DNA of 64,000 nucleotides from Sipunculus nudus (lineage: Eukaryota > Annelida > Sipuncula > Golfingiida > Sipunculidae). The translations under genes and the position numbers were made by a program. The notes beneath the pieces are model-generated. The model worked only from the letters and a program-made list of their open reading frames with translations. It ran no database searches and had not been told where the DNA came from. The stretch spans positions 43,256,456-43,320,455 of the forward strand of contig CM049318.1 in assembly GCA_026874595.1 (NCBI GenBank). Direction: 5' to 3'. Below, one piece after another: positions 78 through 58,860 of the stretch (its first letter is position 1; every line of letters begins with the position of its first letter).

Positions 78-2738
78 AGCTCAGCTGACTATAAGTCATC
101 TGAGCTATAGTCGTGGTCCATTGTCCGTCGTCCGTCCGTCTGTCCGTCCGTCCGTCCATCCGTCCGTCCGTCCGTCCGTCCATAGATGTGGCACGTTTTG
201 AAACCGTAAGACCTAGGAATCCAAAATTCGGCATAATGTTAGATGTCCCCAAGATCTCCTACCAAGCCGAAAACTGGGTCTTTGCGACTTTGTTCCTTTG
301 AGAAATTAAAGAAAAACCTCAATTTTTTATTAAAAACCTATTTTTACACTTCAGGACTGCCTAATATCAAAACCACTCATCTGTTTTTCCTCATATTTAC
401 CATAGTTATTCCTCTATAAAGTTCCTATGTACATGCCAGAAATTATGTCTGTATTATAAAAATTTAAAAAGTTATGGGCCCAAACATAATGCATTGTTAA
501 AAAAATCAGGAAAGATATTTGATCACTTAACACAAAATATGTTAAAGCTATAAACTTTTTTTCCAGTAATATAACTTTAATAAATCAAAATTAAATTGTA
601 TACCCAAAATTAGATCAAAATCTTTTAATTTTGTTAAAATATTAACAAAAATAAAAAATTGGTACCTTAAATTTTGCCACACTTTGACCATGGCACGTTT
701 TTTTCCTGAAAGTACTGTGGATTTAATTTTCACAGCATGTTTTTTTTAAGCATTTTGTCTGTAAACACCAAAAATTTGAAACCAGTTGATCAAAAACTGT
801 ATATTTTATTCAAGCTTTCAAGCACCATGTAACATATTGTTTACATCAAACTAGTGTCATGCAGTTTGCAAGTGCTCAGCTCCCCAACTTTAGCTCTCAG
901 TTCCTAAAATTTGGCATACAATTAGATGTCTCCAAATTCCCCTACCATGCCAAGAATTTGATCACTAGGACTTAATACCTTTGAGATATTAATGAAAAAC
1001 TTCATTTTTCCATTAAAAACCCATTGTTACACTTCAAGACAGCCTATTATCAAAACCTATGATCTGACTTTAATCATATATAATATACATATTTTTCTAT
1101 ATATTCTCTATGCACATGCCAGAAATTATGTCAGTATTGCGTAATTGTTTTAAGTTATGGGCCCAAACATAATGCACTTTGTAAAAAATCAAGAAATATA
1201 TTTACTCCCTTAACAAGAGGATTGCTGAAGCTAGAGATTTTTTGTCAGGGATGTAACATTATTTAATCAGGATTCAATTGAATACCCAAAATTAGTTCTG
1301 AATTTTTCAAATTGTATAAGTTATTAGTATAAATATAAAATTAGTACCTTAAATTTTGCCCAACTTTGACCATGGCATGTTTGTTTCCTGTGAGTACTGT
1401 TGATATAATTTTCATATCATGCACACATAAAGATTTCAGCTTTTTAGTTTGAAAAGCTGAAAGAAATTGGCCAAAAATTGTAGCTTTTATTAATGTTTTT
1501 ATGAGACCATGTCAGACCTTGGCTCTCTGTAGCACCTCTTGAGTCACCTGTATGTTGACCTGGTTGAACTTTCAGCAAATTATGCATGCTTGAGGCGAGA
1601 CATAAACTGGGGCTCCAGGCAGCTTATTATATAATGGCCAGCCACAGTTGATCTAGGTGTCCAACCCAACGCATCTAGTAGTTTTAACCAACAACATAAC
1701 AATAAACAATAAATTAATAAATTTTTATTGGTTTATAATAACAAATTAAAGAAAAATAGAAAAGGAATTTGTTAGTTGATAATAACAGGAAATTAACCTG
1801 CAGTTACTGATGATATAAGAATCTTGTATCGATGGATAGAATGTCATGTATTCCAAATAACACCATGCAGTCACCTATGGTATTTTTCAGTTCAATTTAT
1901 ATGATAAAAAAGTAAATCATATTATTCATTACTAATCATTAGGGATCATATGAAGGAAATTAATGATAGACAAAGATGCAGTTGATAATATTAATCTAGA
2001 TTCCTACTGTGTCTAGTGTGTACATTGATGTGAAATTAGTCCAAAATAAATATATTACATTTTTTTAAAATATAAATAAAAGCCATAAAACCAGGTACTT
2101 ATGATCATTATTCAAATGTGTGAATTTTGTATATTCTGGATTCTCAACATCATTGTTTGGTGAAAACTGAATAAATACCAGACATGGTGCGAATACTTTG
2201 CAATTGTATTTAAACACGAATATGAATATGTACTCCATTATAAAATTTCTTTCATAAGAATGGAAATTCAGGTAAAAATGAAAGTATATGAATACCAGTG
2301 CAAATATTTTCAAAATGTATTAATGAATGCATTCATGAATATATTCTTTAATATTATTTTAATAATCATTTCAGTCATATTTTATTTGAAAAAATCATAC
2401 TATTCTCTTATTATTTTTAATAAAAATTATATTTAGGACAATATTTGTAATTTTTCTAATAAATAGTTAAACTCTTATATTATATGTTCTGCTTATATTA
2501 GTTATATGGCCAAGTCAAAATCTGTGTGACAATCCCACTCCATTTTTTAATGAAATAAATGAAATTTATCCTCTTTCCTGTCTCCAAAGGTACTATCAAA
2601 ATCATACATTAGCTAAACAACAGCAACTCATAATACAGCTTATTTTTATTACCATATAAAACCAGCATGTGCCTCATTTCTAAATCATATTTTTTTATCA
2701 TATATATCAGCTGAGCGCCGTGACCCATAGGTCCCTTG
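78..2738 (+). mobile_element. HA family element, short subfamily, complete copy
   Basis: It starts with a near-perfect hairpin (78-110) containing GCTCAGCTGA. A TCCGTC-rich microsatellite follows at about 120-180. It ends with the inverted motif TCAGCTGAGC, the palindrome region GACCCATAGGTC and CTTG (2735-2738) against TTTT. The body holds two diverged units about 681 bp apart: 'ataatgcattgtt' near 488 recurs as 'ataatgcactttg' near 1169. A closely similar body is found at 46238-48681. There is no transposase or helicase reading frame; the short ORFs here are chance. The end structure suggests a non-autonomous Helentron-type element, which is an inference from termini only. Confidence 0.8.
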
Positions 2739-3246
2739 TTTTCAAATTTTGACGAATTTTTTTCTCTATTTTGAGACCTTTTAAGATGTGGTTATCTGTC
2801 AACAGGGTACAAATAGTAACAACTCAACCTAGAATCTTCATTCTTGTCATGCAAGGAGGCCCATGAAAAGTGTCTGTGGAAACCTGAAATTAGGTCTCTG
2901 TTTCCCATATCCTTCAAGCTATAGGACTCCGAAGTATCCCTCAGAATAATGGAAAATTTGATACAAAAGCTGAAGTATCTGAACAACTAATGCAGAGATC
3001 ACCATGATTCTTTGCATGTATATTGACCATTAAGTGTTTTTATTAGTTTCTGCAGACTGGTGGAGCCACCTGTATTTTTTTAAGTTTACGCATTTTTTCT
3101 CTATTTTTAAAATGCAGACACAATCATGGCCTGTTGGTTAATCTGTTTGATGCTTCAGCTGAATGGCTATATACATACAGATGATAAAATTTCCTTGTGC
3201 GAATCTCTTCCCATTCAGCTGAGCATCATGACCCATGGGTCACTTG
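2739..3246 (+). mobile_element. HA' element, 3' part with core unit
   Basis: The core unit interrupted at 77 continues here ('ctctattttgagacctt...' then 'tgcagactggtggagccacctg'). It ends with the HA-type terminus: CAGCTGAGC, the palindrome GACCCATGGGTC and CTTG at 3243-3246. HA' shares the HA termini but has a different body of roughly 310-bp units. The flank after 3246 is HB body, so this element was itself inserted in an HB copy. Confidence 0.7.
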
Positions 3247-8159: not shown

Positions 8160-8167
8160 TTGACCGA

Positions 8168-11185: not shown

Positions 11186-12944
11186 AGCGAACCTGTGAGC
11201 TTATGCGATGGCGCTGCGTCGTACGTCCGTCATCAGCCGTCCGCCGTCTGCCGTCCGCCGTCCAGGGCTGGCTTTCTGTCGTCCATGGCTGTAAGTCAGA
11301 AACTGTCTGAGCTAGCAGCTCCAAATTACATGTAAGAATTCGTCACATGTGAAACTTGGTGCCCTGGAGCTTATTATTGGGTATCTGCATTAATTTAGAT
11401 TTTATAGAGAAAAAGCTTAAAAACCTTAATTTTCTTCTCTGAAACTGAAATTTTGCAGGTATTTTACATCCTTGACAGCTTGACATCCCAGACAGGTGGC
11501 ACCACCTACATTCACGTTTACTCTGCAGACATCCAAGCTCATATCTCGGGAACCATTTGACCGATTGGGCCAAAATTTTGCTTGTGTATAGATCTCACAT
11601 AGCTCTTCATCATAGGCAAAACTGGTGGCGCCACCTGCAACCACTTATGCACAACATCCATCTGTTCATCTGCCTTTGGATAATATCACTCATATCTCAG
11701 CAGTGGTTTGACTTATCCACCTGAAATTTTGCAGGTATATACATCCTTTACAGCTTTCTTGATTTATGACAGGTGGCGCCACCTACGTTCACGTTTACTC
11801 TGCAGACATCCAAGCTCATATATCAGAACCATTTGACTGATTGGGCAAAAAGTTTGCATGTGTATAGATCTCACATAGCTCTTCATCATAGGCAAAACTG
11901 GTGGCGCCATCTGCAACCACTTATGCACAGCGTCCATCTGTTCATCTGCCTTGGGATAAAATCGCTCATATCTCAGGAGTGGTTGGACTTATCCACCTGA
12001 AATTTGCAGGTTTATACATCATGGACAGGTTTCTCGATTTTATGACAGGTGGTGTCACCTACATTCACATTTACTCTGCAGACATCCAATCTCAAATCTT
12101 GGGAACCGTTTGACCGATTAGGCCAAAAATTTTGCATGTGTATAGATCTCACATAGCTCTTCATCATAGACAAAACTGGTGGGGCCACATGCAACCATTT
12201 ATGCACAGCATCCATCTGTTCATCTGCCTAAGGTTAAAATTATTCATATCTCAGCAGTGGTTTGACTTATCCACCTGAAATTTTGCAGGTATTTTACATC
12301 CTTGACAGCTTTCTCGATTTTTTGACAGGTGTCGCCACCTACATTCACATTTACTCTGCTGACATCCAAGCTCATATCTTGGGAACCGTTTTACCGATTA
12401 GGCCAAAATTTTGCATATGTATAGATCTCACAGAGCTCTTCATTATAGGCAAAAATGATGGCGCCACCTGCAACCACTTATGCACAGCATCTATCTGTTG
12501 ATCTGCCTTGGGATAAAATCACTCATATCTCAGCAGTTGTTTGACTTATCCACCTGAAATTTTGCAGGTTTATACATTTATACACCTGGACAATTTTCTT
12601 GATTTTATGACAGGTGGCACCACCTAAATTCACATTTAAGCTGCAGACATCCATGCTAATATGCAACACACCACGCTCTATTCCCCTTGCCACTTAATCC
12701 ATGCCTCACTTCACCCGTCCCACTCTGATTTATGCGGATACACATAGTGGCTTGTCGACTACCCATATTCTGGTTTTAAAATTTTCTAGTCCGAAACTTG
12801 CAGGTCAGAAATGCCATTTTGCTGAAATCATAATGACTAAGGTAGATATGCAGGACTTAGGAGGATCAATATTAAATTTTAAAAATAAACCTCCATTCAT
12901 ACTCCTAAACTTTGCACAGGTTCGCATTAGGCCTGTAGGCCTTG
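11186..12944 (+). mobile_element. HB element, complete inner copy
   Basis: The 5' end at 11186 is AGCGAACCTGTGAGC after TTTTT, followed by GTCCGTC/CCGTCC microsatellite (11223-11270). The 3' end carries the exact inverse CACAGGTTCGC, hairpin AGGCCT-GT-AGGCCT and CTTG (12941-12944). GCGAACCTGTG and its subterminal inverse match at 11 of 11 positions. The core is a tandem array of about 280-bp units. No protein-coding gene is present. Confidence 0.85.
11460..12660 (+). repeat. HB core tandem array, about 280-bp period
   Basis: Units repeat at about 11492, 11770, 12044, 12325 and 12610, judged by 'gacaggtgg(c/t)(a/g)(c/t)cacctac'. Each unit carries two GGTGGCGCCACC-like palindromes about 140 bp apart. 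Related arrays occur in other HB copies at about 27490-28640, 37340-38290 and 50495-51200. Confidence 0.88.
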
Positions 12945-14203: not shown

Positions 14204-16273
14204 ATGCGCCCGCCACAAAGTGGCCGGGGCATTTAGTTTTACCCATGTCCGTCCTTCCGTCATTCCGAAATCAAACAGTTGTACGGACTTTTTTTCACAA
14301 TGCCTGCAGATATTGGCCTGATTTTTGGTGTGTGGGCAGATAATGACCAGTTACAGATCGAGTTCGTGTTCTGTCCCAGTTGACCTACTTTTGACCGTTA
14401 AACGGCTCCTAAACTTAAAAAATTTCATGAAAAATAGAAATGTTCATGACAAATACACATGTACAGACTTTTTTTCACAATGCCTGCATATATTGGCCTG
14501 ATTTTTGGTGTGTGGGCAGATATTGACCAGTTACAGATCGAGTTCACGTTTCATCCCAGTTGACCTACTTTTGACTGTTTTACGGCTCCTAAACTTATAA
14601 AATTTCATGGAAACTAGAAATTTTCCTGACAAATACACATGTACAGACTTTTTTTCGCAATGCCTGCAGATATTGGCCTGATTTTTGGTGTGTGGGCAGA
14701 TAATGACCAGTTACAGATCGAGTTCACGTTTCATCCCAGTTGACCTACTTTTGACCGTTTAACGGCTCCTAAACTTAGAAAATTTCATGAAAAATAGAAA
14801 TTTTCATGACAAATACACATGCACGGACTTTTTTTCGCAATGCCTGCATATATTGGCCTGATTTTTGGTGTGTGGGCAGATATTGACCAGTTACAGATCG
14901 AGTTCACGTTTCATCGCAGTTGACCTACTTTTGACTGATTAACGGCTCCTAAACTTAGAAAATTTCATGAAAAATATAAATTTTCATGACAAATACACAT
15001 GTACAGACTTTTTTTCGCAATGCCTGCAGATATTGGCCTGATTTTTGGTGTGTGGGCAGATATTGACCAGTTACAAATCGAGATCACGTTTCATCCCAGT
15101 TGTCCTACTTTTGACCGTTTAACGGCTCCTAAACTTAGAAAATTTCATGAAAAATAGAAATCTTCATGACAAATACACATGTACGGACTTTTTTTTGCAG
15201 TGCCTGCAGATATTGGCCTGATTTTTGGTTTGTGGGCAGATATTGAACAGTTACAGATCGAGTTCACGTTTCATCCCAGTTGACCTACTTTTGACCGTTT
15301 AACAGCTCCTAAACTTAGAAAATTTCATGAAAAATAGAAATTTTCATGACAAATACACATGTACGGACTTTTTTTCCCAATGTCTGCAGATATTGGCCTG
15401 ATATTTGGTGTGTTGGCAGATATTGACCAGTTACAGATCGAGTTCTCGTTTTGTCCCAGTTGACCTACTTTTGACTGTTTTACGGCTCCTGAATATATAA
15501 AATTTCATGAAAAATATAAATTTTCATGACAAATACACATGTACAGACTTTTTTTTGCAATACCTACAGATATTGGCCTGATTTTTGGTGTGTGATTAGA
15601 TAATGACCAGTTATAGATCAAGTTCATGTTTTGTCCCAGTTGACCTACTTTTGACCGTTTGACGGTGCTCTAACATAGAAAATTTCATTAAAATATGCAT
15701 GTACAGACTTTTTTTTTGCAATACCTACAGATATTGGCCTGATTTTTGGTGTGTGAGCAGATAATGACCAGTTACAGATCGAGTTCTTGTTTTGTCCCAG
15801 TTGACCTACTTTTGACCATTTGACTGCTCCTGAACATAGAAATTTTCATGAAAGTAGAAATTTTCATAACAAATGCACATGTACGGACTTTTTTTCCTCA
15901 ATGCCTGCAGATACCACCCTGATTTTTTATGTGTGGGCAGATAATGACAGTTACAGATCAGGTTCGTGTTTTGTCCCAGTTGACCTACTTTTGATTGATT
16001 TACGGCACCTTAACATAGAAAATTTCATGAAAGACAGAAATTTTTATGGAAAATGCACATGTATGGACTTTTTTTCACAATGCCTGCAGATACTGGCCTG
16101 ATTTTTGGTGTGTTGCTTGATAATGACCTGTTACAGATGGAGTTTGCATTTTGCCCTTGTTGACCTACTTTTGACCAAACGACACCTCCTTAACATAAAA
16201 AAATTTTCAAAATTTAACAAATGTTTCTAATTTGCCCCAGGCGGGGGCATTTGTCTCGTTTCGACACATCTAG
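14204..16273 (+). mobile_element. HC element with ~11 core units (Pearl-like)
   Basis: The 5' hairpin is ATGC-(G/C)CCCGCCAC-AAA-GTGGC-CGGGGCAT, followed by CCGTCCTTCCGTC. At the 3' end the inverse GGCGGGGGCAT is followed by a stem (about TCG-TTT-CGA here, longer in the second copy) and CTAG (16270-16273). Between them lie about eleven 180-bp units: the phrase 'tgcctgcagatattggcc' recurs at about 14302, 14482, 14662, 14842, 15022, 15202, 15382, 15562, 15725, 15902 and 16081. This is the organisation of bivalve Pearl elements and of Drosophila DINE-1. There is no coding capacity. Confidence 0.85.
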
Positions 16274-16279
16274 TTTTTT

Positions 16280-19601: not shown

Positions 19602-19640
<39 letters not shown>

Positions 19641-42476: not shown

Positions 42477-42537
42477 CCCCACAAAAAAAAGAATAATTCG
42501 ACCACCAGTCGGCACTTCATCTCATGGTGCTTCTTAT

Positions 42538-42703
42538 AATAAACACGCCAGACTCAGTCACGTGAACCTTGTCCATTTTAAAGACTTTACAAAATAAACA
42601 CGCCAGACTCAGTCACGTGAACCATGTCCATTTAAAAGACTTTACAAAATAAACACGCCAGACCCAGTCACGTGAACCTTGCTGATGTAAAAGTAGATAC
42701 GAT
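42538..42703 (+). repeat. 55-bp tandem repeat, three copies, with CACGTG
   Basis: Three units start at about 42538, 42593 and 42648. Each contains 'aaacacgccagac(t/c)cagtc' and TCACGTGA, an E-box palindrome. The third unit diverges after 'gaaccttg'. Confidence 0.88.
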
Positions 42704-43285
42704 TGGGTGAGAAAAGTTTGCAGCGTCAGTGCGTCACTGCTGGCTAAGGGATGACACGGTAGAATTGGACCGTTCAGGAAAAAAACGAAACAGATGTGTC
42801 GTCTTGCATCTTAATTGCCCAGTAAATGTTTTATTTATTTTTATTTTTCCGTTATATTGACTAGATAGGATAATTCTGGGACTAAAGTCTGCAAAACCGC
42901 CTCGTTAATGTACATTGTGTGCTACATATTGCTAAATTCACTCATTATCGCTCAATCAGCGTCAGCCGCGGAGGGGCGGGTACTTCAAAGGAAATTTCAT
43001 GGATACCCTCAATTAAGAAAATAAGAGTTTTCACAAGTGTAAGACATATTTGTTTTGATTTTTTTATTTCAAATTTTAGTACATTTGCACTGTTTCGAAT
43101 GGGAAAGATTTGGATATATCAACGTTTATTTAGGCTAATCGTTGATCGAACCAAGTGCACACCTGTTTACCTGTCGCACCTGGATTTTTACCTGTGCAGA
43201 TAAACGCGACAGACTAACTAAACAGCAATTTTATTATTGCATGAAATGTTGACAAACATAGTAGACACAATTTTCCAGATTTTAT

Positions 43286-44300
43286 TAGCTCAGCTGACTT
43301 TCAATCATGCTGGGCTATAGCGAGGGGTCTTTGTCCGTCGTCCTTCCGTCTGTCTGGCCGGCCGTCCAGCCGTTAGCAGGGCACAAATCGTAACCGCAGG
43401 GGCTAGGCCATGAACCCTATGCAGTCTTAGAGGTTCCAAAAAGATCTCCTTGCAAACCTGAAATAAGGTCACTGCGACCTTTATTATGGAAGTTATGGGG
43501 TGTGTTTGCACCCCCAGAAATAAATCTTTAAGCCAAAAGTTTCATCCAAAACCTTCCATCTTTCACATACAGCTCACCTACCAACAGGGGAAGAACCATA
43601 ATTGTTTTGAGGTCACAAGGTCAAAGGTCAAGGTCACAGAACCAACTTCTTTGAAAAGCCTGTGGATGCATTTTAAGCCAAACCTTTCATCCCAATTCTT
43701 TGATCTTTCACATATAGCTCACCTACTAAGTAGGAGAAGAATCCTATAGATGTTGAGGTCACAAGGTCAAAGGTCAGGGTCACAGGATCCTTGTCTTTGA
43801 AAAGGTTGTGGACACATTTCAAGCTAGACCTTTCATTCCAAACCTTTCAGCACTGATATCGCTTCCCTGCCAACAGGGGAAAAGACCTGTTGATTTTGAG
43901 GTCAAAGGTCAAGTTCACAGCACCCTCTTCTTGCGTGGAGTCATTTTCAGGCAAACTTTTCAATCTATACTTTCCATCTGTCATATATGGCTTACCTATC
44001 AATAGGGGAAGAAGCCTATTGATGTTGAGTTCAAAAGGTCAAAGGTCAAGGTCACAATATTGTTCTAAATGCTTGTGAACATATTTCAAGTGAAACTGTT
44101 CAACCCAAACATATGCCACATCTATGCTTCACTCAGTGTGATTCTAACTTCATATTTATGGGCTTTTTGCATGAAGAAATAACTAATTGACTTTGAGGTC
44201 AGCTGGTCAGGAGGTTAAAGGTTGCAGGTCTAAGTTATTCACTCATTGGTTGCCAACTAATTACACCCGGCCAGATGTAATTGGTTAGTAGTTACCCATC
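43286..44300 (+). mobile_element. HA-like element with ~140-bp units carrying AGGTCA repeats
   Basis: The 5' end AGCTCAGCTGACTTTCAATC and hairpin are followed by GTCCGTCGTCCTTCCGTC and an HA'-type segment. From about 43537 to 44100 there are four to five units of about 140 bp with 'aaggtcaaaggtca' followed by 'aggtcaca' (near 43617, 43759, 43899 and 44036). No matching 3' terminus was recognised. Open frames here (43486-44078) follow the repeat period and are not genes. Confidence 0.65.
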
Positions 44301-46237
44301 ATTTAGAAAGAATCCAGTTGATCTGTAGGCAAAAGGCCAAGGTCATAGGTCAGGTCAACTATTTTGTAGACCATCTCTATTTTTCTTGTATACATAAGCT
44401 TGCACTCCAGCTGGTACATCTCACCGTGTGGCTGTAATTGTGAGTGACACTGGTGACATATGACTCCCTTTTGTATCAGGCTATTAAGTGAATATGACTG
44501 AGTGATAAGTACCTCGTTACTGCATAACAAAACACTGTTGTTGGAATACTTCAGCCAGGAATTAACACTATGAGAGTATAGAATTAAGGTTTAGCTACTG
44601 ATTTATAAGATGATGGGAACATTTTTTTTTTGCAGTTTATTTTATGGAATCATAGCAATAAACTTAGTTTCCTAGATATCTGAATATTTTTATATAAATC
44701 ACCACATATAAAAGCAAGTGTTTGTTCTCATAATATGTGGATGTGTACTTGATTTAGGATGGCTTTATTTTATTACAAGACTTTTAGTCATGCTTTCTGC
44801 ATTTCTTTTCTTTCAGGTTTTGCAGTTTACCAACCCTGCTGACCCCATTGAAAAGCAGAGTGATAATAAAAAATATTGGACCTACACTTTTACATTTGCA
44901 TATCTATAAATCTGATATGAGCGCCTGAACATGCCTTTTGAATTGTTTTGGACATTCATTACTGTAACATCATTTGGAGAATTTGCCCCAAGTTTGGTCT
45001 CTTATTGGAGGATGTCTGATATCAAATGTCAGACTTGGAGGAAATCCATTATGTCTGCCAGTTAGCCACCTTAGAAATCCTTTTTTCAGTGCAGTTTCAG
45101 TAATTTTCCTTCGGTTTTTGGTCCGATTTAGAGAATGGTTGTTGTCTGATTTCAGACCTGTCAGAAGTCCAAAATGGCCACCAGGGAACCATCTTTAACA
45201 CATGGCACTCAAAATTAAGTTGTATGTTTTTTTTTTCTCCCTTATTACATGTATAAAATATATACTTCATTAAAAAAAATAATTTACCTGTATTTACCTG
45301 AACTCACCTGTACAGGTGAGTATGTTGAGTATGTTTTTATGTGTAACCGTAACCAAAATTATCAATTTATGTTTTACTTGTCTGAAAAATGAAAATATAA
45401 TGGTTTTACACAGTTAACACTTGTTTATCCATATTCTTCTCAGCCACTTTTCAGCATGATTTTGTCACTGGCACAGGTAATTAGATCAGTTGAAGAACAA
45501 AGGTACTATTCACATAGGTAACTTAATTACTGTATTAAAAGCACCTGTTCTTATATCAAAATGAATCATACAGTCCATAAATAGAGAAGGTATTAATTTA
45601 TAGTAACTATAATGATGAACAAAATTTACCTGTTTTACCATATTCAGAAAAAAAATAATTTACCTTTACTTACCTGTACAGGTAAACATATGTGTTATAT
45701 GTTAATAGTCATAGAATGTGCTCTTTTGGTCAGCAAGCCTTTCAGGTGAAAAATATATGATTTCCACAGAAAAATCCAATTTTACTTGCACATTCTGGTT
45801 CGTCGGTGGTTCCCTTTCCAGTGTTAAACCAAATCATTTACCTTTTTCTTACTTTTAATTTATAATTACCTTAGAGTGAAAAAAAAATCCTTACATTTCC
45901 CTTTTTTTATCAAACGGTTCATGGGTTACCTGAACAGGATGAAAGGGGTCATTTTGGTGATATACCAGTGAGTGGAAATACAGGTAGTACAGATTTACCT
46001 GTTTTTACCTGTATATACCTTAGTTACATACATATCAAACCAGGTATGAAGAAAATAAATTAAATAACATGAAGGACATATACCTGACAGTAAAAGCTGA
46101 AAATTTCACAAAGATACCTTTAACCGTTACTGAGTTAATGTCTCATATAGATTCATGTCAAAATGTGGAAAAAATGCAAAATAAATCTGAACAGTAGGAG
46201 TGTGACAATCCACAGGCTAATCTGAACAGTAAAGGGT
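44301..46237. other. AT-rich, TTACCTG-rich non-coding segment
   Basis: No gene. The phrases 'ttacctgt' and 'acaggt' recur many times between 45280 and 46050, for example 'cacctgtacaggtgagt' and 'acctgtacaggtaaac', each containing the palindrome ACCTGTACAGGT. An acceptor-like site before 44818 and a 90-nt open frame after it could mimic an exon, but no donor or family match supports it. Confidence 0.5.
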
Positions 46238-48681
46238 TAAGGAAAAACCTCAATTTTTTATTAGAAATCTATTTTCAAACTTCAGGACTGCCTAATATCA
46301 AAACCACTCATTTGGTTTTCTTCATATTTACCATAAATATTCCCCTATATAGTTCCTATGTACATGCCAGAAATTAAGTCAGTATTATTTAATTTAAAAA
46401 AGGTATGGGCCCAAACATAATGGACTCTGTAAAAAAAATCAGGAAAGATATTTGGTCACTTAAAACCAAAAGTGTTAAAGGTAGGGACTTTTTTCAGTAA
46501 TACAACTTTAATTGATCAAAATTTAATTGTATACCAAAAATTAGATCAAAATCTGTTAAATTTTTTGAAATATTGGCAAAAATATAAAATTGGTACCTTA
46601 AATTTTGCCCAAGTTTGACCATGGCACGTTTTTTTTCCTGTAAGTACTGTGGATTTAATTTTCATAGCATATTTTTGTAAGCATTTTGTCTGTTAACACC
46701 AAAATTTGAAACCAGTTGATCAAAAACTGTAGATTTTATTCAAGATTTCAAGCACCATGTCAAATCAAGTTTACATCAAGCTAGTGTTATGCAGTTTGCT
46801 AGAGCTCAGCTCCCCAGCTTCAGCTCTAAGTTCCTTAAATTTAGCATACAGTTAGATGTCTCCAAAATCCCCTACCATGCCAAGAATTTGATCACTAGGA
46901 CTTAATTCCTTCAAAATATTAATGAAAAACTTCATTTTTCCATTAAAAACCCATTGTTCCACTGTAAGACTGCCTAATATCAAAACCACTGATCTGACTT
47001 CGATCATATATAATATACATATTTTTCTATACATTCGCTATGCACATGCCAGAAATGATGTCAGTATTGCGTAATTATTTTAAGTTATGGGCCCAAACAT
47101 AATGCACTTTTTAAAAAATCAAGAAATATATTTACTCCCTTAACAAGAGCATTGCTGAAGCTAGAGATTCTTTTGTCAGGGATGTAACATTAATCAAGAT
47201 TCAATTGAATACCAAAAATTAGTTCTGAATTTTTCAAATTTTATAAGTTATTAGTATAAATATAAAATTAGTACCTTAAATTTTGCCCAACTTTGACCAT
47301 GGCACGTTTGTTTCTTGAGAGCACTGTTGATATAATTTTCATATTATGCACACATAAGGATTTCATCTTCGTAGTTTAGAAAGCTGAAAGAAATTGGCAA
47401 AATATTGTAGCTTTTATTAATGTTTTTATGAGACCATGTCAGACCCAGGCTTAATCCAGCCCCTCTTCAGTCACCTGTATGTTGACCTTGTTGACCTTTC
47501 ATCAGATTATGCATGCTTGAGCAAAGCATAGACTGGGGCAGCCAGGCAGCTAATGCCCAGCCACAGTTGATCCAGGTGTCCAACCCAACTCATCTAGTAG
47601 TTTTTTTGAAAAACAACATAACAATAAAACAATAAATTAATAATTTTGTATTGTTTTTTTTATAACAAATTAAAGAAAAATTTATAGAAAAGGAATTTGT
47701 TAGTTGATGAGTAACAGAAAATTAACTTGCAGTTACTGATGATGTAAGAATCTTGTATGGATGGATAGAATGTCAATGTCAGTGTTATTCCAAATAACAC
47801 CATGCAGTCACCTATGGTATTTTTCAGTGAAATTTTAATGATAAAAAAATAAATTATATTATTCATTACTATTCATTAGGGATCATATAAAGGAAATTAA
47901 TGATAGACAAAGATGCAGTTGATAATGTTAATCTAGATTCCTACTGTGTCTAGTGTGTAGATTGATGTGAAAATAGTACAAAGTGAATATATTACATTTA
48001 TTTTTTTTTAACATAAATAAAAGCCATAAAACCAGGTACTTATAATCATTATTTTAAATTTGTGAATTTTGTATATTCTGGATTCTCAACATCATTGTTT
48101 GGCTAAAACTGAATAAATACTAGACATGGTGCGAATGCTTTGCAAATGTATTTGAATACGAATATGAATATGTACTGCATTAAAAAATTTTATTGCATAA
48201 GAATGGGAATTCAGGTAAAAATGAAAGTATTTGAATACCAGTGCAGATACTTTCAAAATGTCATCATGAATGCATTCATGAATATATTCTATAATATTAT
48301 TTCAATAATCATTTCAGTTATATTTTATTTAAAAAAATCATATGATTTTCTTATTATTTTTTTTAAATAAAAATTATATTGGCACAATATTTGTTATTAA
48401 ATTTTAATAAATAGTTAAACTCTTTTATTATATGTGCTGCTTATAAGTTATATGGCCAAGTCAAAATCTGTGACTGTAGCACTCCATTTGTTAATAAAAT
48501 AAATGAAATCAATCCTCTTCCCTGTCTCCAAAGATACTATCAAAATAATACATAAGCTAAACACCAACAACTCATAATAAGGCTTATATTTATTACCACA
48601 CAAAACAAGCATGTGCCTCTTTCCCAAGTCATATTTTTTATCATATATAACAGCTGAGCGCCGTGACCCATGGGTCCCTTG

Positions 48682-49338
48682 TTTTCTCTATTTTTGAGAC
48701 CTTCAAAGAAGCTGTCATCTGTTAACAGGGCAAAAATTGTTACTGTTGGACCTGGAATCTTCTAACTTGACATCAAGGGAGGTCCATGAAAAATTCCTCA
48801 GGGAGACCTGAAATTAGGTTTCTGTTACCAATATCATCCGAGCTATGGGGCTCGTAAGTACCCCTCAGAATAATTGAAAATATAAAACAAAAGCTCAAAT
48901 ATCTGAACAACTATTGCATTGATCACCATGTTTCTCTGCATGAACATTGATCATGGAGTGTTCCATCAGTTCCTGCAAACTGGTGGCGCAACCTGTATTT
49001 TTTCAATTTTTTACGATTTTTTTTTCTCTATTTTTGAGACTTAAAGATGTGGTGATCTGTTCACAGGGCACAAATCCTTACCGCTGGACCTTTAATCTTC
49101 TCACTTTACATCCAGAGTGGTTTATGAAAAGTCTCCTTGGAAACCTAAAATTAGATCTCTGTTATCCATATTCTTTAAGCTATTGGGATTCCAAGTATCC
49201 CCCAGAATTATGAAAAATTTGATACAATGCTCAAGTATCTGAACAACTTATGCATTGATCACCATGATTCTTAGCATGGATATTAATCATGGAGTGTTTC
49301 ATCAGTTTTTTGTAGACCAGTGGCGCCACCTGAATTTT
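48682..49338 (+). repeat. HA' core units
   Basis: Two 310-bp units ('gatcaccatg...gttccatcagttcctgcaaactggtggcgcaacctg') follow the HA terminus and end at the HB start. This is the flank of the HA' element into which the split HA was inserted. Confidence 0.68.
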
Positions 49339-51322
49339 AGCGAACCTGTGAGCTTATGCAATGGTGCAGCGTCGTGCGTCGTGCGTCATCTGTAGGTTAA
49401 CCATAGCTATCTCAAAAATGGCAGGAGCTAGCACCACCAAATATTTTGCAAATAATCAGTCATCTGAAAAACTCTTTTGGATTTTATTTATTTTTTTCTA
49501 ACTGCATTTTCTTAGATTTTATAGGGAAAAAGCTAAAAAAGCTCTCAAAATCTTCTTCTCTGAAACTGTCCAGCCAAATTGTCCAATATTTCACAGAAAT
49601 GATCCCTGGAACAATCTCTCTCAAGTTTGTTTGAATGGTTCCAGTTTGGAGATTTTTGGCCGAGTTACAGGATGTTGAACTTGGTCATCTGTCCAAAAAA
49701 GCACACTAAAATTAAAATCTCAGAAACAGCCAGAGCTATAATCACCAAATTTAATACCAATGTTTGTCACATATGCCATATCTGAAATTGAGGTATTGGT
49801 GGTGCCACCTACATTGATCTGTTTTTTACAAGCGAAAATGTAATTTTAAACTCTTCTAGCTTATACACTGATTTATGATGAAACTGTTAAGCTGATTGGT
49901 TTAAACTTTACAAGAATTATTCTATGGTAGGGTTCTGCCAGTTTTATAAGAATAGATTGGGTAAATACAGCTTTAAAAAAGCATTGTCGCCAATTGAAAA
50001 AGGCTTTCTGTGTTTGAAAACAGATTTGACAACATGCTGAGTTTCATCAGCCAAGTCAAGAGGTCACTCAGTACTAGGTAACTAGGTGGGGTCCAGACAT
50101 CACCATGGCAACTGACCTGGCTCTGGCGGATGTCTGGACAATGTGTCTAGACGTCTAAACATTGTGTCTAGACGCAGAATTCCCAGATTATTGGATCTAT
50201 ATCTTTCAGCTGTTTGAAAAATTTTGGTTTGCATTTTTAGCAAATCTGTGAGATTATTCAATGTTGTGGCAACGTCCGTCGTTCATCTTCCGTCATGCGT
50301 CATAGCTATCTCAAAAAGGGCAGGAGCTAGCATCACCAATTGTTTTGCAAAAGATTTGTCATCTAAAAAATTATCCGATTTTTAGCGAACCTGTGAGCTT
50401 ATGCAATGTTGCTGCATCGTCCATCGTGCGTCATGCGTCGTCTCTAGTTAACCAATCCTATCACAAAAATGGCAGGAGCTAGTGTCACCAGATTGCGCAG
50501 CGTCTATCTGTTCATCTGCCTTTGGATAATAACACTCATATCTCTGCATTGGTTGGACCTATCGACCTGAAATTTTGCATGTGTATACATCTTGGACAGC
50601 TTTCTTGATTTATGACAGGTGGCGCCACCTACATCATGTTTAAGCTGCAGACATCCAAGCTCATATCTCAGGAACTGTTTGACCAGTTGGGCCAAAATTT
50701 TGCATGTTTACAGATCTCCCTTAGCTCTTTATCATAAGCAAAACTGGTGGCGTCACCTGCAACCATTTTTGCACAGCGTCCATCTGTTCATATGCCTTAG
50801 GATAAAATCACTCATATTTCAGCAGTGGTTTAACTTATCCACCTGGAATTTTGCAAGTTTATAGATCCTGGACAGCTTTCTCGATTTTCTGACAGGTGGA
50901 GCCACCATTCAGGACTCTACAGATATCCAAGCTCATATCTCAGGAACCGTTTGACCGATTGGGCCGAAATTTTGCTTGTGTATAGATCTCACGTAGCTCT
51001 TCATCACAGGCAAAACTGGTGGCCCATCCTGCAACCACTGATGCACAGCATCTGTCTGTTCATCTGCTTTGGGATAAAATCACTCATCTCAGCAGTGGTT
51101 TGACTTATCCACCTGAAATTTTGCAGGTTTATACATCATGGGAAAAATTCTCGATTTTATGACAGGTGGCACCACCTACATTCTCGTTTAAGCTGCAGAC
51201 ATCCATGTTAATATGCAACACACCTCAATCTATTCCCCTTGCCACAATATTAAATTTTAAAAATAAACCTCCATTCATACTCCAAAACTTTGCACAGGTT
51301 TGCATTAGGGCTGTAGGCCTTG
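49339..51322 (+). mobile_element. HB elements, three 5' ends in series and one 3' end
   Basis: HB starts are seen at 49339 (AGCGAACCTGTGAGC), 50239 (AGCAAATCTGTGAG) and 50384 (AGCGAACCTGTGAGC). A single terminus, ending in CTTG, lies at 51319-51322. The 49339 part closely follows the HB copy at 26479, including the TCTAGA-rich spot near 50118-50175. The 50384-51322 copy is short, with about 2.5 array units. Confidence 0.75.
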
Positions 51323-53110
51323 TTTATCATATATAACAGCTGAGTGATGTGACCCATGAGTCCCTCGTTTATCTATTTTTGAGACCTTAAAAGATGTGGT
51401 CATCTATTAACAGGGCACTTATCGTAACAAATAGACCTAGAATCTTCTTTCTTGACATGCTGGGAGGCCCATGAAAAGTCTCCTTAGAAACCAGAAATTA
51501 GGTCGCTGTTACCCATTTTCTTCAAGCTATGTGGCTCCAAAGTACCCCCCAGAATAATGAAAAATTTGATACAATAGCTCAAATATCTGAACAACTAATG
51601 CATTGATTACCATGATTCTTTGCATGGATATTGATCATGGGGTGTTTCATGAGTTTCTGCAAACTGGTGGCGTCACCTATATTTTTTCAATACTTTTTTA
51701 CGATTTTTTTTCTCTATTTTTGATACCTCAAAAGATGATGTCATCTGTTAACAGGGCACAAATCTTAACCACTTGATCTAGAATCATCTTTCTTGACATG
51801 TGGGAGGCCCATGAAAAGTTTCCTTGGAAACCTAAATTAAGGTCTCTGTCATCCATATTGTCCGAGCTATAGGGCTCAGAAGTACCCCCCTGAATAACTT
51901 AAAATTTGATACCAAAGCTCTAGTATCTTAACAACAACTGCAATGAGCGGCATGATTTTTTGCATGCATATGCATCATAGAGTGTTTCATCAGTTCCTGC
52001 AGACTGGTGGCACCACCTGGCCTTTTTTCGAATTTTAGGCATTTTTAACTTTATTTTTGAGACCTTCTAAGTTGTGGTCGTCTGTTAACAGGGCACAAAT
52101 CATAACCATTTGACCTGAGATCTTCTTTCTTGACATCCCAGGAGGTAGATAATCTCTATGGATAATCTCCATGGAAACCTAAAATCTGGTCTCTGTTAGT
52201 TACCCATATCCTCTGAGCTATGGGGCTTAATTAGAAGTACCTCCCAGAATAACTAAAAAGTTGATACAAAAGTTCCTGTATCTGAACAACAAATGCATTG
52301 ATCACCCTGATTCTCTGCATGCATAATCCTAATGGAGTGTTTCATCTGTTCTTGCAGACTGGTGGTGCCACCTGGATTTTTAAAAAGTTTTAACACATTA
52401 CTTTCTCTATTTTGAGACCTTTACAGATGCAGTCATCTGTTAACAAGGCACATATTGTAACCATTGGTCCTAGAATCTTCTAACTAGACATCCATTGAGG
52501 TCTGAGAAAAATATCTTTAGAAACTTGAAATTAAGTCTCTGTTACCCATATTCTCTGAGCTATGGCGCTTATAAGCACCCCCAATATAATTAAAAATTTG
52601 ATACTGTGCAGGGCACAAATCATAACCATTGGACCTAAAAATCTTTTAATTTAAAATCCATAGAGGTCCATGAAAAGTCTCCAAGGGAACATGAAATTAG
52701 GTCTCTGTTACCCATATTTTCTGAGCTATAGGGCTTATAAGCACCCCCAGAATAATTAAAAATTTGAAACCAAAGTAGGGTACAAATCATAACCATTGGG
52801 CCCAGAATCTTCTAAGTCCCTCCGAAGTTCTACCCAGAAACCTGAAATTCGGTCATTGTTACCTATATTCTCAGAGTTTTGAGGTATGTTTGAGCACCCC
52901 AGAAATAATGCAAAATACACACAAATTGCCAGAGTCCTCAGGAAAGGTTGGTTGGATTGTCATCAAATATGTTATGCTTATGGGTCTTGGTGAACATAAG
53001 CTAATATACATGAACAATGATGCCACCTTAATTATCGTAATTAGTTGCCTGTGCAAGTACATATTGTCAACATGTCAGTCGGCTGAGCGTCATGACCCTT
53101 GGGTCACTTG
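51323..53110 (+). mobile_element. HA' element with at least four core units
   Basis: An HA-type terminus-like sequence (51340-51372) is followed by units of about 310 bp starting 'ctctatttttgagacc', each with 'gttaacagggcacaaat', 'cctgaaattaggtctctgttaccc' and a GGTGG-CCACC site. The copy ends GGCTGAGCGTCATGACCC, GGGTCACTTG at 53107-53110. No coding gene. Confidence 0.7.
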
Positions 53111-54058: not shown

Positions 54059-55340
54059 AGATCAGCTGACAATAAGGCTGTCCCTCCATCTGTCTGTTTT
54101 TTAAATGGCACATTTTGAAACCATTAGATCTACAAATCTGAAATTCACCATACTGTTCGATGTCCCTCACTTGTCCTGCCAAACTGAAAACGTGTCACTG
54201 CAACTTTTGTTCCTTGGAGAAATTCAGGAAAATCCTCCCTTTTACAATAAAAATCTTTTATCACACTTCAGGACTGCCTAACATGGAAACCACTTGTCTG
54301 TTTTTCTCCATATTTACCATAAATATTCTCTAATATATTTCCTATAAACAGGCCAGAAATTAGGTCTGTAAATTGTAATTAGGGCCCTGCTTGATAAGCT
54401 ATGCCCTATAGTGATCGCCGTGTCTGTCCGTCCTTCCGTCCTTTCGCCAGTGACACTTTCTTTCGCACGTGATAACTCAACAACAACATACTGCAGCTTT
54501 CCCAAATTCACAGGGATGATTGGTACCTATGATGGCTCCAGACCTATTGAATTACAGACGTTAGATATCCAGTATGGCTGCCACAGCCCAATTGCTTATT
54601 TTCTTTCGCACGCAATAACTCAACTCATATTTTTCAAATTTAACTTAATTTTTCACCCATATGTATACGAGTCCAGCACTAGCAGAAACGCGGGGCCCTC
54701 TGAGGACCATTGTCTGACCACATCTAATTTTCTAAATGTTATGGGCCCAAACATAATGACCTTTGATAAAATCAGGAAAAATATTTATTCACTTAACATG
54801 GTAAATGTTAAAGCTAGAGACAATTTCCTAATTTATAACTTTATTTAAGCAAAATTTATTGGTATACCCGAAATTAGATCAGAATCTTTTACATTAAAAT
54901 CAGTACCTTAAATTTTGCCCAACTCTGACATTGGCACATTTTTTCCTGTAGGAATATTTCATTTAATTTTCACAGCATGTACACATAAGGATTAATCTTT
55001 TGAATTCAAAATTTGCACATAAAAGCCAAAAAAATTAGGCTAGTTACTGATTTTTTTTTTTGGAGGGGCTCTATTGTATTCACTTGCATTGTCAAGGCAG
55101 CCCACTTCTGGTCATATCCCCTCATGTACGTCACAGGTGTAAATGTTGTTGCAATTTAGATTTATATATTTAGAAATGTATGTTATTCAGCAAATGTATA
55201 AAGTTTATAAACTTAAATTTTTTATAAGCTTTAAAAAAAAAGGATCAAAAGCAGACATTTTCTCATTATTTTCCTGCTCAGTGTGCTAGAATGGGAAATA
55301 AAGTGATTGGCTTTGTCTTTCAACATCTGTACCTATTTTT
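54059..55340 (+). mobile_element. HA element, 3'-truncated, hosting HE
   Basis: Starts AGATCAGCTGACAATAAG at 54059 after a T-run and follows HA body. It is interrupted at 54381-54727 by HE and continues to about 55340, where HB begins. An open frame at 54411-54848 spans HE and HA sequence and is fortuitous. Confidence 0.72.
54381..54727 (+). mobile_element. HE element, 347 bp
   Basis: The 5' hairpin AGGGC-cct-GCTT-gat-AAGC-tat-GCCCT is followed by GTCTGTCCGTCCTTCCGTCC. Near the 3' end lies GCGGGGCCCT, the inverse of AGGGCCCTGC at 9 of 10 positions, and the element ends at CTAA before TTTT. The HA copy it interrupts reads straight across the junction (AATT | TTTTC), which fixes both ends. Smallest of the five families and without a tandem core. 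Confidence 0.8.
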
Positions 55341-58300
55341 AGCAAACCTCTAAGCTTATGCGATGGTGTGGCATTAGCCGTCATCTGTCTGTTCACCCAT
55401 ACTATCTCGAAAATGGCAGGAGCTAGCATCACCAAATTTTAAGCAAATAATTAGTCTTCTAAAAAACTCGGATTGTGCTTATTTTTTTAGCTAACTGCAT
55501 TTTCTAAGATTTTATTGGGAAAAAGCTAAAAAATCATCTTCTCCGTAACTGTTCAGCCAAATTGTCCAATATTTCACAGAAATGATTCCTGGAACAGTCT
55601 CTCTCAAGTTTGTTCAAATGGTACAAGTTTAGTGATTTTTGGCCCATGTTACAGGAAGTTGAACTAAGTCATCTGTCCAAAATAGCATACTAAAATTACA
55701 ATCTCCGAAAAAGCTTGAGTTATCATCACCAAATTTCATGCAAATGTTGGTCACATGAGTATTTATTGAAATTGAGGTATCGTTGGCGCCACCTGCATCG
55801 ACCATAACTGTACAGGGGTCATCAGTCATCAGTACATTAATCCATAATTTCTCAGGAAAAGCAGGAGTTGGCAGCCCAAAATTTTATGCAAAAATGTCAC
55901 ATATCAAATGTTGTGGAATTTAGTGTTTTGTGGCACCATCTGCATTAACTAACATTTTATGGTGATAAAGCTAAAAACCTTTGAAAATCTTCTTCTCAAA
56001 AGTCATTTAACCAAATTGTTCAGTATTTCACAGAAATGATTCCAGAGACCAGCTCTTTCACGTTTGACAAATGGTTTTGGTTTGATGAATTTTGGCCGAG
56101 TTACAGGAATTTGAAATTAGTCATTTTGCAAGTAAGCATACACATAATATCAGAAGCAATATGAGCTAGGATCACTAAATATTGTGCAAATGTTGGTCAC
56201 ATGACTCATTTGAAATTGCAGTTTTTGTGCGCCACCTACATCGACCTGATTTTACAGCAGAAACCTAGTAATTTTAGCCACAGATTTACAGATATGAAAT
56301 GTTTTATGATGAAACTGTCAAACTAAATGGTTTAATTTTTCACATGAATATTCTAGGATAGGTTTTTTGCTTGCCGGAATCAAAGATTTGGGCAAGCATA
56401 TTGGTCAGTTGCGTATGTCTGTTTGTCTGTCTGTCTGTCTGTTTGTCATCACTCTCCTGGCCACAATTTTGCCATAATCACCTTGAAACTTACAGGGATA
56501 ATGGAAAACAAAATTTTTCTAGGTGCCCTATTGTTTTTGGTTAATATAGGTCAACAGTTAAGGTCAAGGTCATCGAAAAACCACGAAATTTCATTTTCCT
56601 CATAACTTGGTCAAAAATGGTCGTATCAACCTCATTCTAAGATCATTTTGTTCGTCTTTCCTTTCCCCATATCATGGTATGATCAACTTTTGTTGACTTT
56701 GTGTCACCTTGTCAGTATGTCTGTCTGTTCCTCTGTTGTTGTCAATTTTGACAATGACCTTGATGTTCTGTCTGACATTTAGTACAGTACAGGCCACAAT
56801 TCTGCAGCAATCACCTTGAAACTTACAAGAACGATGAAAAACCGAAGTTCGAGGTAGCCCATTGTTTTTGGTTAATTTGGGTCCAAGGTCAAGATCATTG
56901 AAAAACCTTGAAATGTTATTTTCCTCATAACTTGGTCAAAATGGCCATATCAACCTCATTCTAAGGTCATTTTCGTCATCTCTCCCTTCCTTATACCATG
57001 GTATGATCAATCTTTGTTGACCTTGTGTCACCTTGTCAGTATGTCTGTCTGTTCCTCTGCTGTTGTCAATATGGTCAACGGCCTTGATGGTCTCAATGAC
57101 ATTTAGCACACTTCAGGTCACAATTTCGCCACAATAACTTTCAAACTTTCAGAGACAATGGAAATCTAATCTTCTAGATGCCCTATTGTTTTTTGGTCAA
57201 TATAGGTCCAAGGTCAAGGTCAAGATCATTAAAAAACTTTGAAACGTTATTTTCCTCATAACTTGGTCAAAAATGGCCGTATCAACCTCATTCTAAGGTC
57301 ATTTTGTTCGTCTCACCCTTCCCTATATCATGGCATGATTAAACTTTGTTGACCATGTGTCACCTTGTCAGTATATCTGTTCGTTCCTCTGTTGTTGTCA
57401 ATTTTGTCATCGGCCTTGATGTTCTCTCTGACATTTAGCACATTACAGGCCACAATTTTGCAGCAATCACCTTGAATCTTTTAGAGATGATGTAAAACTA
57501 AATTGCCAGGTGCCCTATTGTTTTTCGTCAATATAGGTCAAGGGAAGGTCATCGAAAAACCTTGAAATTTTATTTTCTTCATAACTTGGTCAAATATGGT
57601 GGTATCAACCTCATTCTAAGGTCATTTTCCTCGTTTTTCAATTCCTCATGTTATGGTATGATCAACATTTGTTGACCATGTGTCACCTTGTCAGTATGTC
57701 TGTCTGTTTCTCTGTTGTTGTCAATTTTGTCAACGGCCTTGATATTCTCTCCGACATTTAGCACATTACAGGCCACAATTTTGCAGCAATCACCTTGAAA
57801 CATTTAGAGATGATGGAAACTTGTTGGTGCCCGATTGTTTTTGGTTAATTTGGGTCAAAGGGAAAGGTCAAGGTCATAGAAAAACAGAGACATTTTGTTT
57901 TCCTCATAACTTGGTCGTATCAACCTGAGTCTTACTTCATTTTGTTCGTCTGACCATTTACCATGCATATCATGATATCATCAACCTTTGTTGACCTTGT
58001 GTCATCTTGTTTTTATTTCTGTCAAAAATGAATTGTCCTGTATAGGATAGCTACTAATAATAACACTAACAATGTCACTCTATCTGTCTGTCTGTCTCTC
58101 TGTCTGTCTGTCTGTCTACTCATCTTTGACTTTTGAAAATCAGCAAAACCTTATTCATATGTGCTTCTATTTCCCCCATGATAGGGGTTTTATATTTGAT
58201 CAGATCCAAATGTTCCCTGTCTGTCTGCCTAGTAACTGTCCATCTATTTCGCTGTCCTATTTCCAGTCACTTCCGGCAAGCGTTCGACCTCTGGTCGTCT

Positions 58301-58860
58301 AGTTTTGTAATGTATATGGATAGGTTGGGTTTATTGATTTTTGGTAGAGTCATAGAGAGCTCAAGTTGGTCTTGAGGCCATTTGTAAGCATTTTGATAAA
58401 AAAAATCTTATGGATATGTCAGCTTGAAAAAAAGTATTGTAGCCAAAGTCTTTCAGTACCATGTGTAAACAGATTTACCAACAGGCCAAGATTGAGTCTG
58501 TATATATCTTTTAATAGCTTCGCAGACTGCCAACTGTTTCAGATTTTTCAACAGGCCAAAGGTTAGTCTAGATCTATTTATAGCTTTGACAGACTACTAG
58601 ATGTGTCAGATTATAATACAGGTCAAGAGCTCACTCAGTGCAGCCAGGTGCAGGTCAAGAGTTCACTCGCTTTTCTCACCTACGCCCATTGCACCTGACT
58701 CAAGAGAAGTTTGACCTGTCCATGCATCTTTCATGGCTTTCTCATTCACAAAACTGGTGTCGCAACCTACAGTGACATTTGCGTAGTGTTAGTGCTTGCT
58801 TATTTCTCAGGATGGGTTTAATATATCAGCCTGAAATTGTGCATATTTATACATCTCGTA
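55341..58860 (+). mobile_element. HB element, 3'-truncated, hosting HD
   Basis: Starts AGCAAACCTCTAAGC at 55341. HB body runs to the T-run at 56363, then HD intervenes, and HB body resumes after 58302 ('gagctcaagttggtcttgaggcca', compare 35850). It goes on through the 'cagactgccaactg' minisatellite and into 'gactggtgaag' near 58880. No HB 3' end is present. Confidence 0.7.
56368..58302 (+). mobile_element. HD element with five ~325-bp core units
   Basis: After TTTTT it starts with the hairpin TGCTTGCCGGAATC-aaa-GATT...GGCAAGCA and the microsatellite (GTCT)n near 56415-56445. The 3' end carries TTCCGGCAAGC, the exact inverse of GCTTGCCGGAA (11 of 11). Then come the stem CGACC-TCT-GGTCG and CTAG (58299-58302) before TTTT. 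Core units recur every 324-330 bp, with 'cctcataacttggtc'-like phrases at about 56598, 56923, 57253, 57578 and 57902. No coding capacity; a second GTCT run lies at 58081-58117. Confidence 0.87.

What the first reader, a model, noticed from the sequence alone, without database searches (positions are those of the whole stretch)
78..58302. Five unrelated repeat families share one Helentron-like terminal plan
HA, HB, HC, HD and HE have different bodies, yet each begins with a short motif after a T-run. Near its 3' end each repeats that motif inverted: GCTCAGCTGA/TCAGCTGAGC, GCGAACCTGTG/CACAGGTTCGC, ATGCCCCCGCC/GGCGGGGGCAT, GCTTGCCGGAA/TTCCGGCAAGC and AGGGCCCTGC/GCGGGGCCCT. In four families a small hairpin and CTTG or CTAG follow, abutting T; HE ends at CTAA. 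Subterminal inverted repeats, a 3' hairpin and T-T junctions are the described signature of non-autonomous Helentrons (DINE-1, Pearl). Several such families crowded into one locus suggests one replication machinery served many derivatives.
Basis: partly seen in the sequence, partly recalled or inferred. Interest (0 to 1): 0.85.

Follow-up and report, generated by a model that had tools for sequence, protein, structure and literature searches.

The report
Helentron-derived repeats with matched coding partners
The five repeat families have the end structure of short, protein-less relatives of rolling-circle jumping genes (Helentrons), and for two of them, and probably a third, longer enzyme-coding relatives with the same ends and the same satellite-like array were found in this genome, each on its own enzyme lineage.

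Summary
In detail: five multicopy families have the subTIR / 3' palindrome / CTWG|T plan of non-autonomous Helentrons (HINEs), four of them with a clear inner inverted repeat at the 5' end; HE's pair has one mismatch. That plan is published for DINE-1 and for the oyster Cg_HINEs, whose autonomous partners the authors could not identify. Here partners were found. HC ends bracket a 12.0-kb element with Rep and PIF1-helicase frames (this copy broken); HA ends bracket Rep elements at two loci (12.1 and 11.5 kb); HD ends bracket a 20.8-kb stretch whose Rep-lineage ORF lies antisense to the ends (one locus with both ends; nesting not excluded). HINE copies look like internal deletions: they keep the 5' module with its satellite-like array (180 bp in HC, 340 bp in HA-gamma, ~330 bp in HD) and the last tens of bases. 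Among 22 labelled loci terminus type follows the Rep tree without conflict (4 steps for 5 states; lowest of 10,000 shuffles 8). So 'one replication machinery' is not supported: several related machineries (34-88% Rep identity), with different ends. Empty sites show insertion in T-runs without a longer duplication. HB and HE remain without partners. New members of a known kind; the partner link is the gain.

The parts
79..2738 (+). HA copy; 5' subTIR 79-88 with inner inverted repeat 96-105, 3' subTIR/palindrome/CTTG 2707-2738; sits in a 340-bp array whose sequence resumes after 2738
17519..21011 (+). HA copy; a further HA 5' end at 16281 lies upstream (two 5' ends, one 3' end 20980-21011)
38711..39089 (+). 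HA 5' end followed by a 340-bp array unit; 83% to the 5' module of the Rep-associated HA-gamma element L016; interrupted by the next HA
39090..48681 (+). HA 5' end and HA 3' end flanked on both sides by the same T-rich part of the 340-bp unit (outer element; another HA 5' end at 43288 lies inside; pairing inferred)
11187..12944 (+). HB copy with 278-bp tandem units; another HB 5' end at 11016 and 3' end at 13021-13050 lie around it
26480..28930 (+). HB copy with 278-bp tandem units; both subTIRs carry the same matched one-base variant
50385..51322 (+). HB copy (3' subTIR with one mismatch to its 5' one); further HB 5' ends at 49340 and 50240 upstream
14204..16273 (+). HC copy with 180-bp tandem units (5' subTIR one mismatch); its 3' end is followed by an HA 5' end at 16281
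29002..30704 (+). HC copy with 180-bp tandem units
56369..58302 (+). HD copy with tandem units of about 330 bp
54381..54727 (+). HE copy (subTIRs with one mismatch)
48682..49338 (+). 340-bp tandem array of the HA-gamma 5'-module type, interrupted by HB at 49340
51368..52604 (+). 340-bp tandem array of the same type, resuming after HB and HA 3' ends
44809..45198 (+). uninterrupted paralogue of the insertion site of the HA-gamma element at C8:33.93 Mb (80% over 399 bp; about 20 bases at the junction unaligned)

Best explanation
HA-HE are families of HINEs: internally deleted, protein-less Helentrons moved in trans by Rep/helicase proteins of longer Helentrons. Each keeps (i) a 5' module with the subTIR, usually its inner inverted copy, and a satellite-like tandem array, and (ii) a short 3' tail of subTIR, palindrome and CTWG. 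Replication is inferred (established Helitron model, not tested here) to start at the 5' end, stop at the 3' palindrome and end in insertion between Ts. Different Rep lineages have different subTIRs, so each HINE family is probably served by its own lineage; close lineages share a subTIR (HA alpha, beta, gamma) and differ in the palindrome. Shown: ends, T-run target for HA and HD, both-end brackets around Rep genes for HC and HA-gamma (and, with the nesting caveat, HD), shared 5' arrays, agreement with the Rep tree. Inferred: trans-mobilisation, rolling circle, recognition of the subTIR by the protein.
For: Rep (PF14214): 143 matches in the genome, 150 of 195 candidates scored; none lies in the window. 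Of 44 Rep loci whose 3' flanks were read, 21 carry a same-strand HA or HC 3' end (two weak: L050, 8 mismatches; L051, 5) and 1 of them also an opposite-strand one. The same scan of the six 13.9-kb stretches E1-E6 found only the two 3' ends behind the ORFs of E5 and E6. Homology between Rep copies stops within about 8 bp of these ends in the pairs seen (L016 with L043, L042, L020, L018, L041, L017; L017/L019; E5 with L053, L022, L023; E6/L014); L017/L040 runs 17 bp past, and E6/L013 runs through (segmental duplication); the listing was cut. HC: 12,003-bp element C3:41766495-41778497(-) with HC5, HC3 (one mismatch), and Rep, DUF6570, PIF1; window HC copies match its first ~1.24 kb at 83-85% and last ~55 bp at 84-88%. 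HC3 also follows Rep at L057. HA-gamma: both ends around Rep at C8:33928240-33940366 and C8:22648313-22659851, the 340-bp array beginning within about 80 bp of the 5' end. HD: C8:80128783-80149625 has HD5 (first 215 bp 89% to the window copy), the HD array (75-82%), an antisense 2,250-codon open frame of the E1 lineage, and HD3 (3 mismatches); HD subTIR + inner repeat at 3 of 3 loci of that lineage read far enough. Tree: 22 labelled loci, 5 states, 4 steps; lowest of 10,000 shuffles 8; HA alone, 17 loci, 2 steps, lowest 4. Empty sites: C8:22620187-22620327, 97% over 142 bp of HA-gamma joined flanks; window 44809-45198 for L016; HD at C1:82.58 Mb, 5 diverged sites read; two HA insertions in the 340-bp array.
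Against: Both ends were found at only 3 of 12 loci whose 5' sides were read (L016, L018, L021; not E1-E6, L014, L020, L023), plus E2 for HD after reading further. No partner for HB or HE at any of the 44 loci (one HB3, at L041, follows an HA3). HA-alpha: no HA5 between 2 and 18 kb upstream of L014's Rep (the nearest 2 kb not read), and E6/L014 homology begins at a non-HA sequence. HA-beta: 5' end not reached; a one-mismatch subTIR at E5 and L023 lies inside longer homology. L014, L016 and L022 each have two HA 3' ends of different subtype. The HC coding copy is broken (964- and 877-codon frames in different phases); of the HA-gamma coding part only 1 kb per locus was read. Two of four genome searches for empty sites found none (40 of 365 candidates scored, 2 of 2, both the site itself). 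23 of 44 loci show no known 3' end: at least 10 of these belong to the HD-type lineage by tree or flank homology, where none is expected on that side, but L024, E4 and others are unexplained.
Confidence: 0.9

Rival explanations
1. One shared machinery (a single Rep lineage) moves all five families, the subTIR being irrelevant to recognition.
For: The families share architecture and T-run targets and sit side by side. HB and HE have no partner of their own so far.
Against: Partners found have different subTIRs on different Rep lineages; terminus type follows the tree, none of 10,000 shuffles being as low.
Confidence: 0.07
2. The HD-type Rep gene is not part of an HD Helentron but of another element nested among HD repeats.
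For: HD ends occur in tandem around these loci; the ORF is antisense to the ends; only E2 has both ends; no HD3 was found in the E1 stretch. The HD5 count of 1,610 does not cover the HD5 variant at E1 and E3, so the chance of such a neighbour is not known.
Against: The HD subTIR with inner repeat lies on the same side and strand at 3 of 3 loci of the lineage. An antisense Rep is on record for Helentron-Da-40 (PMC4067079, passage read).
Confidence: 0.25
3. The families are MITEs or foldback elements of a cut-and-paste transposon.
For: They have inverted repeats and are non-coding.
Against: One-sided 3' palindrome, no target duplication beyond Ts where tested, partners with Rep/PIF1.
Confidence: 0.02

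Closest known systems
Cg_HINE elements of Crassostrea gigas (PMC7492417, passages read)
   Same: 5' subTIR of 11-12 bp, complementary inner IR, GTCY/GTCC/GTCK microsatellite, satellite-like central array, 3' subTIR + palindrome, T-rich target; several unrelated families in one genome
   Different: There ten autonomous elements were known from Repbase but none could be related to a Cg_HINE; here coding partners are identified for HA, HC and probably HD
DINE-1 / HINE-Mo and their Helentrons (PMC4067079, passages read)
   Same: subTIR, IR, 3' stem-loop, TT target, derivation from coding Helentrons, variable terminal Ts; one Helentron (Da-40) with the protein in minus orientation
   Different: Other animals; no satellite-like array in the coding partner was mentioned in the passages read
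Pearl elements, MgE, DTC84 of bivalves (as described in PMC7492417; originals not read)
   Same: Two modules around short arrays of repeats (about 160 bp in Pearl)
   Different: No sequence comparison made here

Membership tests
Helentron/HINE | subTIRs of about 10-13 bp at both ends | tested here: met
   exact in HA-HD, one mismatch in HE
Helentron/HINE | inner inverted repeat next to the 5' subTIR (DINE-1 and Cg_HINE type) | tested here: inconclusive
   clear in HA, HC, HD, HE; not evident in HB
Helentron/HINE | 3' palindrome, then CTWG and T | tested here: met
   HB 10 of 10, HC 5 of 5, HD 5 of 5, HA 23 of 27; HE ends CTA in two copies read
Helentron/HINE | insertion in T-runs, no duplication beyond Ts | tested here: met
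   empty sites for HA and HD, paired flanks for HD 4 of 4; HB, HC, HE by flanks only; two searches without result
Helentron/HINE | coding partner with Rep and PIF1-type helicase and the same ends | tested here: met
   HC; HA-gamma (Rep segment only); HD with nesting caveat; not found for HB, HE
Helentron/HINE | endonuclease domain in the partner | tested here: inconclusive
   clear in E1 of the HD-type lineage (3.8e-13), below cut-off in E5 (HA-beta), not found in the HC pieces or the E6 frame; E2 itself not scanned
canonical Helitron | 5' TC and insertion between A and T | tested here: not met
   families begin GCTC, GCGA, ATGC, GCTT, AGGG; HA and HD empty sites are T-runs. HA and HB are usually preceded by A, read here as element or T-run variation
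Helentron/HINE | rolling-circle transposition | not testable with these tools
   needs an activity assay

The most novel reading that the evidence does not exclude
The satellite-like array is a built-in 5' part of coding Helentrons themselves, lineage-specific like the subTIR, so each Rep lineage carries its own subTIR + satellite cassette. Helentron turnover would then be a standing source of new satellite DNAs, with recognition sequence, array and enzyme diversifying together.
Probability: 0.45. Interest if true: 0.7.

Novelty: new member of a known kind. Interest (0 to 1): 0.5.

Why it matters
Oyster HINEs are abundant carriers of satellite-like repeats, and their coding partners were left unresolved (PMC7492417, passages) or not detected (PMC7992393, passages). 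Coding Helentrons with the same ends and the same arrays explain what the arrays ride on, show that several Rep lineages with different recognition sequences coexist in one genome, and give matched end/Rep pairs for testing what the subTIR does.

Tried and rejected
A single machinery for all families was rejected on the Rep tree. Chance was rejected by shuffles and reversed patterns (0 for HD and HE; 81 + 78 for the short HB motif). That HB 11016-13050 is a short HB with another nested in it was tested with joined flanks: no spanning match among the 40 of 365 candidates scored; the two sides match different places, so it was dropped. HD at C1:35.26 Mb gave only itself. The HA-alpha 5' end was sought and not found. 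E1-E3 first seemed to have no known ends until the far side was read on the other strand. No HE 3' subTIR (up to 1 mismatch) was seen in the ~0.5 kb read of four copies; one diverged 3' end appeared further on. The species was not identified; a bivalve is a guess from the resemblance to Cg_HINEs and the layout (153 contigs, 1.43 Gb). Rows dropped before counts: L051 and four loci without ends were left out of the 22 labelled; L049 was counted as HA-beta though its end has 2 mismatches; loci with two HA 3' ends (L014, L016, L022) were labelled by the one nearer the ORF; alpha, beta and gamma were assigned by eye from the palindrome. E6 and L013 are segmental duplicates and count as two. Two scripts failed (time limit, redone; wrong option, redone).

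Full report
What was checked. HA-HD pairs are exact reverse complements. HE has one mismatch, matching a variant seen at other HE 5' ends. A family-blind search for the whole plan gave 5 sites in the window (3 HA, 1 HC, 1 HD) and none in 20 dinucleotide shuffles; without the inner repeat 5 against a mean of 1.2 (maximum 4), without the hairpin/end 7 against 0.65 (maximum 3). It does not pick up HB, HE or the mutated HC14204. Ten representative copies are unrelated between families except for 19 bp between HA38711 and two HB copies; HA79 and HA38711 share only their first 32 bp.

Copy number and ends. Pattern searches give 7,099 + 7,037 HB subTIRs (5' and 3' ends together), and with up to 3 mismatches 655 + 955 HD 5' ends, 1,217 + 1,299 HD 3' ends and 40 + 43 HE 5' ends; reversed controls gave 81 + 78 for the short HB motif and 0 for the others. 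Distinct 3' tails in the window and fetched loci show CTWG followed by T in HB 10 of 10, HC 5 of 5, HD 5 of 5 and HA 23 of 27. Four HD copies with both flanks read ..TT|GCTTGCC...CTAG|TTT in 4 of 4. One HB copy (26480-28930) carries the same variant in both subTIRs; another (50385-51322) has a mismatch between them.

Coding partners. PF14214 (Helitron_like_N) has 143 matches, 150 of 195 candidates being scored; none lies in the window. I read 2.0-2.9 kb of 3' flank at 44 Rep loci (26, 18): 21 have a same-strand HA or HC 3' end (two of them weak), and one of these also an opposite-strand end. Homology between copies at different loci mostly stops within about 8 bp of these termini; L017/L040 runs 17 bp past and the segmental duplicates E6/L013 run through; the listing was cut at 9,000 characters. 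5' sides were read at 12 loci. Both ends were found at 3: HC around C3:41766495-41778497 (12,003 bp), HA around C8:33928240-33940366 and C8:22648313-22659851. At L016 a second HA 3' end of another subtype lies 0.6 kb further on; homology with L043 supports the nearer one. The proteins scanned (HC pieces, E5, E6, E1) carry Rep, DUF6570 and PIF1 domains; E1 also a clear endonuclease and an OTU domain. The HC copy's reading frame is broken, and of the HA-gamma coding parts only the Rep segment was read.

Satellite arrays. Window HC copies match the first ~1.24 kb of the coding HC element, including its 180-bp array, at 83-85%, and its last ~55 bp at 84-88%. The 340-bp array of the window begins within about 80 bp of the HA 5' end in both coding HA-gamma elements. 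The HD array lies behind the HD 5' end at the E2 locus. In these elements the arrays are therefore 5'-module parts of the coding element, and the HINEs look like internal deletions.

HD. Three Rep loci of the lineage nearest HC (E1, E2, E3) first showed no known end. Reading 6 kb further gave the HD subTIR with inner repeat beyond the ORF's 3' side on the opposite strand at 3 of 3 loci. At E2 an HD 3' end lies on the other side, giving 20.8 kb with an antisense 2,250-codon frame. At E1 no HD 3' end was found; E3 was not read on that side beyond 4 kb. HD ends occur in tandem around these loci, and the genome-wide HD5 count does not cover the E1/E3 variant, so nesting is not excluded. An antisense protein is on record for Helentron-Da-40 (PMC4067079, passage read).

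Rep tree. About 250 aa of Rep from 27 loci (FastTree). 22 were labelled: HA-alpha 3, HA-beta 5 (L049 included), HA-gamma 9, HC 2, HD 3. Unlabelled: L015, L025, L024, E4 (no end seen) and L051 (5 mismatches). Subtypes were assigned by eye from the palindrome; loci with two HA ends were labelled by the nearer. Five states need at least 4 steps; the tree needs 4; the lowest of 10,000 shuffles is 8. Within HA, 2 steps against a lowest of 4. Identities: alpha-beta 70%, alpha-gamma 68%, beta-gamma 88%, HA to HC or HD 34-37%, HC-HD 43%. One subTIR (HA) thus spans 68-88%, and lineages below 45% have different subTIRs. The plan is common, the machinery is not one. HD labels rest on the link above.

Target. 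HA-gamma at C8:22.65 Mb has a paralogous empty site 28 kb away (97% over 142 bp) with a run of eight Ts at the junction. The other HA-gamma site has its uninterrupted paralogue in this window at 44809-45198 (80% over 399 bp; about 20 bases at the junction unaligned). HD at C1:82.58 Mb has diverged empty sites, five read, without a long duplication. HA79 and HA39090 interrupt the 340-bp unit in its T-runs, and the unit resumes on the other side. Two searches found no empty site.

Literature. PMC7492417 (passages) describes the same plan for 11 Cg_HINEs and says that none of ten autonomous elements could be related to them. PMC7992393 (passages) did not detect autonomous elements in the oyster assembly. 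PMC4067079 (passages) links HINEs and Helentrons in mite, Culex and Drosophila. PMC10294476 and PMC12628747 were seen as passages. Six searches were seen as listings, some of them the top of longer lists (25 of 90, 15 of 155); in those I saw no paper announcing coding partners for satellite-bearing bivalve HINEs. Subscription journals are mostly not held.

Open. HB and HE partners, the HA-alpha and HA-beta 5' ends, the species, and any function of the arrays.

Noticed in passing
window 11495-12624, 27615-28609, 37507-38204, 50618-51176 (278-bp units); 57, 3059, 13853, 14183, 38690, 39049, 48982, 49319, 51666, 52006, 52361 (340-bp units): The 12-bp palindrome GGTGGCGCCACC (up to 2 mismatches) recurs in two otherwise unrelated array units, about twice per 278-bp HB unit and once per 340-bp unit. 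Meaning unknown.
   Followed up: partly
window 16240-16281; L093; E1 locus (L098): Ends lie next to each other across a few T-rich bases: HC3|HA5, HB3|HA5, HD3|TT|HD5.
   Followed up: partly
G000 C1:65-67 Mb, C2:66-70 Mb, C3:42-46 Mb: Among the 100 listed exact HD 3' ends (of 2,516 matches) many cluster here, a few to tens of kb apart and often on one strand.
   Followed up: no
window 59393-59560 and 59882-60049: A 168-bp inverted repeat, 91% complementary, 321 bp between the arms; possible foldback element.
   Followed up: no
L006/L012 (C7:71.19 Mb) and L013 (C7:70.98 Mb): Two Rep elements about 209 kb apart share their flank beyond the 3' end: a segmental duplication.
   Followed up: no
E2, L015, L025, L027, L028, L056: Tandem repeats follow the Rep ORF in several loci of the HD-type lineage and match each other; they differ from the HD 5' array at E2.
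   Followed up: no
L005 2342-aa frame, residues 63-210: Match to PF04843 (Herpes_teg_N) at 1.8e-11, an extra N-terminal domain in an HA-beta type protein; E1 has an OTU protease domain instead.
   Followed up: no
L033 position 5299, minus strand: An HC 3' end lies on the opposite strand upstream of the Rep of the HA-alpha locus L014, apparently a separate insertion.
   Followed up: no
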